In this document: positions 45,749 through 48,741 of the stretch, piece after piece
How the letters are laid out: every line of letters begins with the position of its first letter
Numbering within the stretch: the stretch's first letter is position 1
From: an uncultured Halomonas sp.
Lineage (GTDB): Bacteria; Pseudomonadota; Gammaproteobacteria; Pseudomonadales; Halomonadaceae
Length of the DNA: 64,000 nucleotides
Direction: 5' to 3'
NCBI RefSeq assembly: GCF_946887195.1
Contig: NZ_CAMPKE010000003.1
Coordinates: 62,001-126,000, forward strand
Made by a program: the position numbers and the translations under genes
The notes under the pieces: model-generated
Database searches by the model: none
Seen by the model: the letters and a program-made list of their open reading frames with translations, nothing else
Told to the model about the DNA's origin: nothing

Positions 45749-45927
45749 TTTCCCACCTCGTTCGCCGTACGGTATGTAACGCAGCGTAACAGCTCGCGCG
45801 GCGCCTCGTAGGCTGGAAATCGTCCATTGCCCAAGGGGAGAAATACCATGTTCGATGGCTGAGCCATCTACCGTGGATCTGGCGATACGGGCTCAAGGAA
45901 GGGGTCGTCGTAAGGAGAGAAGAAAAA

Positions 45928-46071
45928 TGGAGCGGGCAAAGGGATCGATCGGACTGGCGCTCCAGCCCGAGACCCGAGCTATCGTTGCTGAAGCGAAAAT
46001 GGAGCGGGCAAAGGGATCGATCGGACTGGCGCTCCAGCCCGAGACCCGAGCTATCGTTGCTGAAGCGAAAA
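45928..46071 (-). repeat. Two exact 72-bp tandem repeats carrying the tRNA 3' end
   Basis: Units 45928-45999 and 46000-46071 are identical. Each starts (plus strand) with tggagcgggcaaagggat, the reverse complement of the last 18 nt of the split tRNA-Gly at 46072-46089, so the 3' end of the tRNA occurs three times at 72-bp spacing. Each unit also has a 9-bp hairpin TCGGGCTGG/CCAGTCCGA with an AGCG loop on the minus strand. The last copy is followed by TTTTTCTT and may end the tRNA transcript. No protein is supported in either strand here. Confidence 0.9.
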
Positions 46072-46148
46072 TGGAGCGGGCAAAGGGATTCGAACCCTCG
46101 ACCCTCAGTCGGGTAGGGACGTGGCCTCACGGCCATGTCCCCCCCTAA

Positions 46149-46182
46149 GAACTGAGCGTGCAAGTCTCCCTGCACTCAGCTC
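46149..46182 (-). other. Group II intron domain V
   Basis: A 34-nt hairpin starting GAGCTGAG and ending CTCAGTTC. The lower helix is 8 bp, then a 2-nt bulge (CG), then a 6-bp upper helix capped by GAGA. The AGC catalytic triad is at the 5' side. It starts 9 nt after the maturase stop codon, the usual placement. Confidence 0.92.
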
Positions 46183-46191
46183 AAGCAGCCA

Positions 46192-47835
46192 TTAAGCCTG
46201 GCTCTTCAGCCAAGCCGGTGGCCAATTTGTGCAGCCTCTTGCATGTAGCTGCCGATGGCAGTTGCCATGTAAGAGAACCAAGTTTGTTTCCTCATCACCT
46301 CCACCGAGACTTTTCCAGACCTTATGGTGTATATCCCACTCGGTCTGCTGAGTGATCGGTTCGAGGCAAATCGGACATTTCCCGTGCTGGGCACGCCATA
46401 TCCGGTTTATCTTGGATTTGGCCTGTTCAATCATCCACCGCTTGACCCTCCCCTCGAAGTACTCCTCGTGGCTGGGGTCATATGGGTTGGCGACTGCCCG
46501 GATCTTGAGATGCTTAGAGATCCTTATCTTGGACAGCATGAACAGTTCGTACTCAGCACTGACGAACATCCAATCTCGACCACGGATCGCCGACCAATAG
46601 CGTCGTTTGATCCACCTACGGCCTTTATTTGGATGCCTCCTTTTTGCCCATCGCCAAAGCAACTGCCAGATTTTATGGTCCATTTTGGCGAATGTCCGCG
46701 TGGCACTGACGTGCTTGTGGTACATCCCCCAGCCCCTGAGAACAGGGATCAGTTCGGTAATCAGTAGCTGCTGGGGAGAACCCCGGTGCTTTCTGACCAC
46801 CTCCCTGACGTTCGAGTAGAACCGTTTCTGGTTTTTCAACGATGGCGTCATTCGCCACTTGCCGTTCGGCTTCCGGAACGTCCAACCGAGAAAATCAAAC
46901 CCATCCTTGATATGGGTCATCTTGGTCTTCTGCTCCGATAGTTCCAGACCACGCTCTGTCAGAAAACTCCGGATCAGGCGCTTGGCCTTCTCCAGTGTCT
47001 CTGGGTCGGTGGCCGTGACTATGAAGTCATCGGCGTAACGAATGAAGTTTACTTTCCGGCGTCTCGGGAAATGCTCTTTAAGCATTCCCTCCATGCCATC
47101 AAGTGCCAGGTTAGCCAGTACGGGGGAAATTATGCCCCCTTGTGGCGTGCCTGCGTCAGTAGGGAAAAGTCTACGCAGCTCGATATAGCCAGCTTTGAGC
47201 CATTGTTTCAGCACTGGCCGCTCTAGCGGCACGTGCGTCATCAACCACTCGTGACTGATATTATCGAAGCATCCACGGATGTCGCCTTCAAGGATCCACT
47301 GCGGGGAGTGCTGACGAGAAAGTGCGTTACAGCACTGCATCATCGCATCCTGCGTGGATCTGTAGGGGCGAAACCCGTATGAGTTAGCATCCCCTGTAGT
47401 TTCCGAAACAGGTTCGAGAGCCAGCAGGAACAGTGCCTGCATCGCCCGGTCACCCATCGTCGGAATGCCAAGCGGGCGTTTGCCGCCATTGGCCTTAGGG
47501 ATGTGGATTCTGCGTAGTGGCCTGGCTTTGTAACCTCTCGGTGAGAGATTCCGCAGCGCAAGCACCTTGGTTGCTGGCGTGGACCATATGGCACCATCAA
47601 CTCCCGGTGTCTTATGGCCCCGATTTTCGGTTACGCGTTTGACGGCTAATGCCTTCGCACTTGTAGACCGAGTCAGTAGGCGTTGGAGCTTTCTGACTTT
47701 ACGCCAGTCGCACTCGTTGGCCGCCTTTGCTATTCGGACTTGCAGTCTCCTAACCCGCTGGATCGTAGTACGCCACTCGATTGAGTGCCATTCGGACCAT
47801 TGGGGGGAGACGACATCACGATTGCTCGTGTCCAT
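46192..47835 (-). CDS. ltrA: Group II intron reverse transcriptase / maturase with HNH endonuclease
   Basis: The intron-encoded protein for splicing and retrohoming. The 547 residues run as: RT domains with HIPKANGGKRPLGIP, GDIRGCFDNISH, GTPQGGIISPVLANL and the catalytic YADD (FIRYADDFIV); the maturase X domain around LIPVLRGWGMYHKHV; and a C-terminal HNH nuclease with CPIC, WDIHHKVWKSLGGGDEETNLVLLHGNCH. All active residues look intact. The ATG at 47835 has GGAGG five bases upstream. The frame stays open through the internal tRNA, but translation from there is rejected. GC content is visibly lower than in surrounding genes. Confidence 0.93.
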   Translation of the reverse strand: MDTSNRDVVSPQWSEWHSIEWRTTIQRVRRLQVRIAKAANECDWRKVRKLQRLLTRSTSAKALAVKRVTENRGHKTPGVDGAIWSTPATKVLALRNLSPRGYKARPLRRIHIPKANGGKRPLGIPTMGDRAMQALFLLALEPVSETTGDANSYGFRPYRSTQDAMMQCCNALSRQHSPQWILEGDIRGCFDNISHEWLMTHVPLERPVLKQWLKAGYIELRRLFPTDAGTPQGGIISPVLANLALDGMEGMLKEHFPRRRKVNFIRYADDFIVTATDPETLEKAKRLIRSFLTERGLELSEQKTKMTHIKDGFDFLGWTFRKPNGKWRMTPSLKNQKRFYSNVREVVRKHRGSPQQLLITELIPVLRGWGMYHKHVSATRTFAKMDHKIWQLLWRWAKRRHPNKGRRWIKRRYWSAIRGRDWMFVSAEYELFMLSKIRISKHLKIRAVANPYDPSHEEYFEGRVKRWMIEQAKSKINRIWRAQHGKCPICLEPITQQTEWDIHHKVWKSLGGGDEETNLVLLHGNCHRQLHARGCTNWPPAWLKSQA

Positions 47836-47841
47836 ATCTGC

Positions 47842-47864
47842 CTCCACTTTCATAGGAAGTGGAG
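47842..47864 (-). promoter_or_regulatory. Hairpin pairing the internal tRNA 3' end with the maturase ribosome binding site
   Basis: On the minus strand CTCCACTT (47864-47857) pairs perfectly with AAGTGGAG (47849-47842) across a 7-nt loop. The first arm includes the last five nt of the internal tRNA (CTCCA); the second includes most of the GGAGG that serves the maturase ATG at 47835. Folding would hide the ribosome binding site until the tRNA is cut away. The control role is inferred. Confidence 0.6.
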
Positions 47865-47933
47865 CGGGCGATGGGAATCGAACCCACGTACCTTGGTTGG
47901 GAACCAAGTGCTCTACCATTGAGCTACGCCCGC
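47860..47933 (-). tRNA. tRNA-Gly(CCC), complete, inside the group II intron
   Basis: A 74-nt gene with encoded CCA. Acceptor GCGGGCG/CGCCCGC, D arm GCTC/GAGC with loop AATGGTA, anticodon stem CTTGG/CCAAG with loop TTCCCAA (anticodon CCC), variable GTAC, T arm GTGGG/CCCAT with TTCGATT, discriminator T. It resembles the standard glyU type of E. coli. I see no separate promoter, so it is probably transcribed with the intron from the split tRNA promoter. Its anticodon stem differs from the intron target site. Confidence 0.95.
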
Positions 47934-48267
47934 CCATGAGAACCCATGAGGCAAACACTTACGGCCCCAACGGGGCAAAGTGATTGCCCCGTTGGGTCAT
48001 TTGACGTGCAGCGTCTGTCTAGCAACAGACTACCTGATGGAAGTCAGCACCCTTTCAGGTTGGGGCGATCATTGCATCCCCTATCCGCGCCATTACAGTG
48101 CGGCATTCGCTTTTTCCATCATCCTTTGACCGCTGTCACTTCGCAGCCCCTTGCGGTTCGCTAGTCCTGACGGACATGACATCGGCCTTACCCTGTTCCG
48201 TGTAAGTAACACGGGCTGGGAGGGTTCCATCTTAACGCCGGTGGTTGTACTGCCAACGTAGGGCAAC

Positions 48268-48273
48268 CAAGCA
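48268..48273 (-). other. EBS1 of the group II intron
   Basis: GCTTGG on the minus strand in the loop of a GGGCA/TGCCC-type stem. It is the exact complement of CCAAGC, the last six nt of exon 1 (IBS1). Confidence 0.8.
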
Positions 48274-48333
48274 ATGCCCTAACCAACCACTCCTCCTGGC
48301 GGAGGTTGGACCACTTATCCGCATAAGTCCATT

Positions 48334-48339
48334 CAGCTT
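48334..48339 (-). other. EBS2 of the group II intron
   Basis: AAGCTG on the minus strand is the exact complement of CAGCTT, exon 1 positions -13 to -8 (IBS2). It lies 5' of EBS1 in the intron, the usual order in domain I. Confidence 0.75.
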
Positions 48340-48741
48340 GACGACGCTTCGACGATGGTTCGCTTACGCTAACCCTTCAGCTCAACCTAGCATCTCACCT
48401 GCTTACGGAAGCAGGATCCTGCTGTCACCCTCACGGGTCACAACAGACCCGTGAGGGTGATTACATTGTCAGAGCGCTTAGCACCCAGTCGTTGCCGACC
48501 ACGCACCGCTCCTAGGTTACGGACGGTTGGACATCCGGTCCGCTACGGACATAAGCCCGCCGGACAATTACTTACACGGCTTTCACCGCGGTTTGGGCTC
48601 GGCACGAAGGCCGGGAACCCGTTTAGTGCTAGTTTCTTCATACTCAACGTGATGAAGAGGCTAGCTACCTCCGCGACTCGCAGGTCGCACGCTTGGGAAG
48701 CTGATGCTCTACCAACTGAGCTATGCCCGCCCGGCGAGCCG

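What the first reader, a model, noticed from the sequence alone, without database searches (positions are those of the whole stretch)
46072..48730. Group II intron splitting a tRNA-Gly(CCC) gene and carrying another intact tRNA-Gly(CCC)
Seen: exon 1 (48691-48730) and exon 2 (46072-46107) join to a perfect 76-nt tRNA-Gly(CCC); the 2583-nt insert begins GTGCG, ends AC, has a textbook domain V, and pairs with exon 1 through 6-nt EBS1 and 6-nt EBS2 at the exact IBS spacing. It encodes an intact RT-maturase-HNH protein. A complete 74-nt tRNA-Gly(CCC) lies between domains I-III and the maturase gene. Known: group II introns sit in tRNA genes of chloroplasts, while bacterial tRNA introns are usually group I. 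Inference: the intron disables a host tRNA and supplies a replacement isoacceptor from the same transcript, which would make insertion tolerable. I know of no described bacterial system of this type.
Basis: partly seen in the sequence, partly recalled or inferred. Interest (0 to 1): 0.95.

Follow-up and report, generated by a model that had tools for sequence, protein, structure and literature searches.

The report
Intron carrying spare for interrupted tRNA
A group II intron (a self-splicing, usually mobile kind of element) sits inside a bacterial gene for a glycine transfer RNA and carries, within itself, a second complete tRNA gene with the same anticodon, which likely keeps the cell supplied with the tRNA that the insertion interrupts; the same arrangement is found in four other bacterial genomes.

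Summary
It is no artefact: five further introns in four other genomes share the site, the length (2582-2590 nt) and the internal tRNA. Cargo and interrupted gene have the same anticodon in 6 of 6 introns, including one UCC cargo in a UCC gene. The cargo keeps all 21 cloverleaf pairs through 15 double-sided changes and tracks the maturase more than the host tRNA. Relatives outside the lineage have no tRNA in 26 of 26 genomic loci and no tRNA-like 3' exon in 25 of 25 read. My reading: a self-rescuing intron lineage that homes into tRNA-Gly genes and brings a working replacement. Splicing, cargo expression and rescue are inferred. Proofing of the cargo against the intron's own targeting holds in 5 of 6. 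New variant of a known kind.

The parts
48691..48730 (-). 5' half (nt 1-40) of the interrupted host tRNA-Gly(CCC) gene
   Evidence: joins with 46072-46107 to a complete 76-nt tRNA
48698..48704 (-). IBS2, TCAGCTT, in exon 1
   Evidence: 7 of 7 pairs with EBS2; assigned by sequence match, not by experiment
48691..48696 (-). IBS1, CCAAGC, last six bases of exon 1
   Evidence: 6 of 6 pairs with EBS1
46108..48690 (-). Group II intron, 2583 nt, GTGCG...AC, between tRNA positions 40 and 41
   Evidence: same site and 2582-2590 nt in five further introns
48391..48538 (-). Part of intron domain I (Rfam RF02012)
   Evidence: 95 bits, E 1.6e-18
48333..48339 (-). EBS2, AAGCTGA (intron nt 352-358)
48267..48272 (-). 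EBS1, GCTTGG (intron nt 419-424)
47860..47933 (-). Cargo: complete tRNA-Gly(CCC) gene with CCA end, inside the intron ahead of the maturase gene
   Evidence: 73.1 bits; conserved with covariation in six introns
47836..47859 (-). 24-nt spacer with the likely ribosome-binding site GGAGG of the maturase; may pair with the 3' end of the cargo
   Evidence: predicted fold
46192..47835 (-). Intron-encoded reverse transcriptase-maturase with HNH domain, 547 aa
   Evidence: TIGR04416 363.6 bits, cut-off 300
46108..46184 (-). Intron domains V and VI (Rfam RF00029)
   Evidence: 60.7 bits
46114..46114 (-). [quoted passage not shown]
   Evidence: an A at this place in six of six introns; role recalled from the family
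46072..46107 (-). 3' half of the interrupted host tRNA-Gly(CCC) gene

Best explanation
A lineage of group II introns sits in host tRNA-Gly genes, in the 3' strand of the anticodon stem, and carries ahead of its maturase gene a complete tRNA-Gly gene with the anticodon of the interrupted gene, which likely replaces the tRNA whose gene the insertion splits. Inferred course: intron RNA and RT-maturase retrohome into the tRNA-Gly gene by EBS1/EBS2 pairing and HNH nicking. The interrupted tRNA then depends on splicing, which must compete with folding of the pre-tRNA. The cargo, cut by ordinary tRNA processing enzymes from the transcript or from the excised intron, keeps tRNA-Gly available from the moment of insertion, so that even an essential tRNA gene becomes a tolerable site. 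In five of six introns the cargo's anticodon stem no longer fits the intron's own EBS1, so it would be spared as a target. Shown: anatomy, recurrence, anticodon match, selection on the cargo, its linkage to the intron. Not shown: splicing, mobility, cargo expression, rescue.
For: Six introns in five genomes with the same site and a cargo tRNA-Gly. Anticodon of cargo equals that of the interrupted gene in 6 of 6, one of them UCC in UCC. EBS2 matches the gene each copy sits in: AAGGCTGG with the UCC host, AAGCTGA with the CCC host of the same genome. 126 of 126 cargo pair cells standard, 15 cells changed on both sides, covariation score reached by 0 of 500 shuffles. Cargo distances follow maturase distances (r 0.86, 3 of 720 permutations as high) more than host tRNA distances (r 0.32). 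Relatives without cargo are outside tRNA genes, 25 of 25 read, and form the other side of a branch with support 100. By pattern the cargo is the only contiguous CCC gene in G001, G002, G884, G957, and in G884 the only contiguous UCC gene too. IBS1 pairing of the cargo broken in 5 of 6.
Against: Host exons are intact in 6 of 6, so splicing may suffice and the cargo may be dispensable. No expression data. Only one of six is UCC, so the anticodon match rests on few cases. L030's cargo keeps IBS1 intact and differs in one IBS2 position, and the P0115 cargo read from protein also seems to keep the AAGC form, so proofing is a tendency. One covariation measure (further pair types) was not above shuffles (399 of 500 as high). 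The pattern for intact tRNAs is not exhaustive: no UCC match in 10 of 40 and no CCC match in 4 of 40 genomes, and no CCC match in 14 of 30. Cutting out the cargo would split the intron.
Confidence: 0.72

Rival explanations
1. The internal tRNA serves the intron, not the host: its cloverleaf is a processing or folding signal ahead of the maturase gene, or controls access to the maturase ribosome-binding site, and decoding is irrelevant.
For: The cargo lies 14-24 nt ahead of the maturase start in 6 of 6. In the predicted folds of cargo end plus spacer its 3' end pairs with the ribosome-binding site in three introns and with the start-codon region in the other three.
Against: A folding signal would not need a glycine anticodon, nor one that changes to UCC in a UCC gene. 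Relatives without cargo manage without it: 26 of 26 genomic loci.
Confidence: 0.12
2. The intron splices efficiently, the host tRNA is made normally, and the cargo is a spare gained once that is kept because hosts come to rely on it as one more tRNA-Gly gene (addiction or dosage), not because insertion needed rescue.
For: Exons intact in 6 of 6; in P. profundi the joined host tRNA is identical, 74 of 74, to that of a genus-mate.
Against: Exon identity could also reflect recent insertion. It does not explain why cargo and tRNA targeting occur together and are both absent outside the lineage, nor why the cargo anticodon matches the interrupted isoacceptor.
Confidence: 0.13
3. Assembly artefact or a one-off rearrangement that put a tRNA into an intron.
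For: A 2.3-copy tandem repeat of 72 bp adjoins exon 2 and shares the tRNA 3' end.
Against: Five further introns with the same structure, one in a chromosome titled complete genome, with diverged cargo that keeps its pairs.
Confidence: 0.01

Closest known systems
Mobile bacterial group II introns encoding RT-maturase-HNH proteins (nearest relatives here: the cargo-less introns L004-L027, L048, L051)
   Same: Ribozyme parts RF02012 and RF00029, GTGCG...AC ends, EBS/IBS pairing with exon 1, maturase gene in the same place
   Different: Those relatives carry no tRNA (26 of 26) and their 3' exons are not tRNA-like (25 of 25 read)
Group II introns in chloroplast tRNA genes (recalled, for example trnK with matK and trnG-UCC)
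   Same: Group II intron in a tRNA gene; one of them encodes a maturase
   Different: Recalled: no second tRNA of the same kind inside, and organelle introns mostly no longer move. Not compared by sequence here
Group I introns of bacterial tRNA genes (Synechocystis tRNA-fMet, table entry seen in PMC3073962)
   Same: Self-splicing intron in a bacterial tRNA gene
   Different: Other ribozyme class; no spare tRNA mentioned in the passages read
tRNAs inside mitochondrial introns of fungi (figure legend of PMC7902536)
   Same: A tRNA gene lies within an intron
   Different: The legend places them under the gene that holds them; nothing there says that such a tRNA replaces the interrupted gene
Integrative elements that rebuild the 3' end of the tRNA gene they enter (recalled)
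   Same: Works alike in part: the element makes up for damage to a tRNA gene
   Different: They restore the same gene at a DNA junction; here the element carries a complete separate tRNA gene and the host gene stays split
Engineered home-and-rescue gene drives (recalled)
   Same: Works like: homing into a needed gene plus a recoded working copy of that gene
   Different: Engineered, nuclease-based; here a natural retroelement in bacteria, with the copy proofed in 5 of 6

Membership tests
Mobile group II intron | Domain V/VI and domain I ribozyme parts | tested here: met
   RF00029 and RF02012 over their gathering scores in all six introns
Mobile group II intron | GUGYG...AY ends and bulged A near the 3' end | tested here: met
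   GTGCG...AC and an A at -7 in six of six
Mobile group II intron | EBS1/EBS2 pairing with exon 1 | tested here: met
   EBS1 6 of 6 pairs in all six; EBS2 5 to 7 pairs of the 7 or 8 compared; sites found by sequence match
Mobile group II intron | Intact RT-maturase (with endonuclease) gene | tested here: met
   Pfam and NCBIfam models over cut-off for the window's protein
Mobile group II intron | Splicing and retrohoming | not testable with these tools
   Precise empty sites in relatives fit insertion; no experiment
Group II intron in a tRNA gene | Exons join to a complete tRNA | tested here: met
   Six of six joined genes are 74-76 nt tRNA-Gly
Group I intron | Group I ribozyme core | tested here: not met
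   cmscan of the window found no group I family at gathering score
tRNA-targeting integrative element | Integrase gene within the insert | tested here: not met
   The insert's recognised gene is the RT-maturase-HNH protein; other small ORFs of the insert were not searched
Self-rescuing element (works like home-and-rescue) | Carries a complete copy of the gene it interrupts, with the same specificity | tested here: met
   Same anticodon in 6 of 6
Self-rescuing element (works like home-and-rescue) | The carried copy escapes the element's own targeting | tested here: inconclusive
   Predicted from IBS1 in 5 of 6; L030 fails
Self-rescuing element (works like home-and-rescue) | The carried copy functionally replaces the interrupted gene | not testable with these tools
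   Needs expression and deletion tests

The most novel reading that the evidence does not exclude
A natural lineage of self-rescuing retroelements: group II introns specialised on tRNA-Gly genes, each with an anticodon-matched and mostly target-proofed replacement tRNA-Gly on board, so that they can enter even the single essential tRNA-Gly(UCC) gene, and which in passing move tRNA genes between bacterial genomes (cargo identical to free-standing or host tRNA genes of other genomes).
Probability: 0.6. Interest if true: 0.95.

Novelty: new variant of a known kind. Interest (0 to 1): 0.9.

Why it matters
It would be a natural case of a selfish element that brings a working copy of the very gene it breaks, a logic known mainly from engineered gene drives (recalled). 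It would explain how a retroelement can live in single-copy RNA genes, whereas a review says that most bacterial group II introns lie outside housekeeping genes (passage of PMC4424553). It makes direct tests possible: is the cargo charged, does the host pre-tRNA splice, and which of the two supports growth. It also suggests a route by which tRNA genes move between genomes, and warns that a tool which lists only contiguous tRNA genes reports the intron's tRNA and misses the chromosomal one (as ARAGORN did here).

Tried and rejected
Artefact: rejected by five further copies. Cargo as a duplicate of the host's own gene: rejected for the window, where cargo and host tRNA are 78.9% identical while the cargo is 97.3% identical to the Marinobacterium cargo. 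A strict rule that every cargo is target-proofed: rejected, L030 fails, and the AACC anticodon-stem form also occurs in free-standing genes: 3 of 47 CCC genes (G1053, G1054, G1057) and 0 of 29 UCC genes. These are my hand counts of the rows, cargos taken out, G038 counted once, and two rows that are not tRNA-Gly-like (G1067, G730) dropped.

Led nowhere: viral contigs (none; none; 101 relatives, 80 kept, none in the lineage by identity (at most 56%); 28 of the 80 scanned for tRNAs, none found). Plasmids: 1439 records, all under 60% identity. E. coli genomes: no place covering 80% of the query. A protein search for other maturases read through a tRNA returned only its own query P0115 among 4 candidates. 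No promoter stood out at the cargo (3 sites in the region, 1.6 expected). How common: the lineage was seen in 1 of 390 (order sample), 0 of 275 (family of G038), 3 of 369 (class sample) and 2 of 398 (phylum sample) genomes, under high score cut-offs and with overlap between samples. No structure prediction was run.
Full report
Observation. On the minus strand of the window, 48691-48730 and 46072-46107 are the halves of a tRNA-Gly(CCC), and the 2583 bases between them are a group II intron. It begins GTGCG and ends AC, matches RF02012 (95 bits) and RF00029 (60.7 bits), has an A seven bases from its end, and encodes a 547-aa protein with RT N-terminal, RT, maturase and HNH domains. Ahead of that gene, at 47860-47933, lies a complete tRNA-Gly(CCC) with CCA. 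By standard numbering the insertion point is between positions 40 and 41, in the 3' strand of the anticodon stem. Homologues of a neighbouring gene place the organism near Modicisalibacter, Halomonadaceae. No whole genome is held for the window.

Relatives with the same arrangement. A scan of species genomes found two close relatives, in Marinobacterium sediminicola (83% identical protein) and Pseudomonas profundi (75%); both split a tRNA-Gly(CCC) at the same base and carry tRNA-Gly(CCC) inside. A search of 369 genomes of the class found three more introns, two in G884 and one in G957 (58-61% identical). All six introns are 2582-2590 nt, with the cargo within intron nt 754-835 and the maturase start 14-24 nt after it.

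The anticodon follows the target. Of the two introns in G884, one (L031) sits in tRNA-Gly(CCC) and carries a CCC cargo. The other (L029) sits in tRNA-Gly(UCC), between tRNA-Tyr and tRNA-Thr(GGT), ahead of what reads by eye as an EF-Tu gene, and carries a UCC cargo. EBS2 changes with the host: AAGGCTGG for the UCC host, AAGCTGA for the CCC host. Cargo and host anticodons agree in 6 of 6. Only one of the six is UCC, so this rests on few cases.

The cargo is under selection as a tRNA. Across the six cargos 126 of 126 pair cells are standard, 7 of 21 pairs changed on both sides, 15 cells in all. The covariation score, 0.343, was reached by 0 of 500 shuffles and the slid controls reach at most 0.083; 2 of 500 shuffles reached the number of pairs changed on both sides, and one measure, further pair types, did not exceed the shuffles (399 of 500 as high). 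The cargo is more conserved than the 100 bases before it: between the window and L029, L031, L030 it is 82.4, 87.8 and 82.9% identical against 60.2, 55.1 and 56.0%. Cargo distances correlate with maturase distances (r 0.86; 3 of 720 permutations as high) and weakly with host tRNA distances (r 0.32). The cargo thus travels with the intron; six rows are few for such a test.

Phylogeny. In a quick tree of 73 maturases the seven with cargo and the 24 without lie on two sides of a branch with SH-aLRT 100. Six have cargo by DNA. The seventh, P0115, is a protein record whose N-terminus reads, by eye, as a translated tRNA-Gly, most likely CCC. P0115 branches apart from the other six within the lineage, so one early gain is the simplest reading; the outgroup rows did not form one side of a branch, so the root is unsure. 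A strict N-terminal motif of the lineage fits 100 of the 120 best database proteins, but whether those carry a tRNA was not seen. Outside the lineage ARAGORN finds no tRNA in 26 of 26 genomic loci (two pairs of these loci are copies in one genome) and the 3' exon is not tRNA-like in 25 of 25 read (L051 not read).

Empty sites. In nine of nine genus-mates of P. profundi that were examined (of 36) the tRNA-Gly(CCC) is uninterrupted and upstream sequence is shared; the joined tRNA of P. profundi is identical, 74 of 74, to one of these. G1107 shows the empty site of the G957 copy with matching flanks on both sides, and G1060 that of the G884 CCC copy on the downstream side. For the window, G038 has an uninterrupted tRNA-Gly(CCC) (90.8% identical to the window's host tRNA, 79.2% to its cargo) in a similar gene neighbourhood but in the other orientation, so that comparison is looser.

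How much the cell may rely on the cargo. By pattern the only contiguous tRNA-Gly(CCC) in G001, G002, G957 and G884 is the cargo, and in G884 the only contiguous tRNA-Gly(UCC) is the other cargo. The pattern is not exhaustive: 10 of 40 genomes gave no UCC match and 4 of 40 no CCC match, and 14 of 30 no CCC match. Host exons are intact in 6 of 6. Whether cargo, spliced tRNA or both are used is open.

Is the cargo proofed against the intron? In five of six the pair next to the anticodon loop is inverted (AACC for AAGC), which breaks IBS1 (predicted -2.4 against -7.7 kcal/mol) and weakens IBS2. The same form occurs in 3 of 76 free-standing tRNA-Gly(CCC/UCC) genes (hand count; Fisher p about 1e-5, not corrected for kinship). 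L030 is the exception, so proofing is a tendency.

Exchange with chromosomes. The L031 cargo is identical, 74 of 74, to free-standing tRNA-Gly(CCC) genes of two order-mates, G1053 and G1054, at another locus, where cmscan finds no intron. The L030 cargo is identical to the host tRNA that L031 interrupts. The direction is unknown: capture from a host and escape from an intron both fit.

Mechanism and its tension. Retrohoming, splicing in competition with tRNA folding, and processing of the cargo are inferred from family knowledge. Cutting out the cargo would split the intron; split group II introns can splice in trans in organelles (recalled), or the cargo may be cut from the excised intron. 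In predicted folds of the cargo end plus spacer, the cargo's 3' end pairs with the maturase ribosome-binding site in three introns and with the start-codon region in three, so maturase translation might depend on tRNA processing. This is a prediction only. Placement in domain IV is inferred from the position between domain I and V matches and from the maturase gene.

What is in print. Passages seen, not whole papers: PMC4424553 (most bacterial introns outside housekeeping genes, maturase ORF in domain IV, three target types), PMC8919778 (no such case in the passages), PMC4390854 (self-splicing introns in Bacteria), PMC3073962 (a group I intron in tRNA-fMet in a table), PMC7902536 (intron-encoded tRNAs of fungal mitochondria in a figure legend), PMC4465626 (not relevant). 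Searches listed no paper whose title or abstract start describes a bacterial group II intron with a spare tRNA; most listed papers were not opened. The library holds open-licence papers only, so a description elsewhere is possible.

Verdict. Real, recurrent and striking: a new variant of a known kind, a group II intron with a replacement tRNA as cargo. Rescue is the best-supported reading, not a demonstrated one.

Noticed in passing
window 45924-46089: 2.3 tandem copies of a 72-bp unit that includes the last about 20 bases of the interrupted tRNA-Gly plus flank; cause unknown.
   Followed up: partly
L001 and genomes G1050, G179, G1051, G220, G350, G1052, G260: Seven of seven genus-mates of Marinobacterium sediminicola gave no tRNA-Gly(CCC) pattern match (14 of all 30 genomes there gave none), while its joined host tRNA is identical to that of G392 from the family of G038. 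The host gene itself may have been acquired.
   Followed up: partly
L029 47-180: An RtT RNA match (RF00391) lies upstream of the interrupted tRNA-Gly(UCC), next to a run of N.
   Followed up: no
L022 and L027 (genome G612): Two neighbouring copies of a cargo-less relative; the 3' exon of the L027 copy begins with a group II intron start, as does that of L017.
   Followed up: no
protein P0003: A member 80% identical to the window's protein is recorded from Photorhabdus africana, an enterobacterium far from the marine and halophilic hosts; its DNA was not fetched.
   Followed up: no
protein P0042: A truncated 440-aa member without the HNH domain is recorded from Halomonas sp. EGI 63088; possibly a decaying copy.
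   Followed up: no
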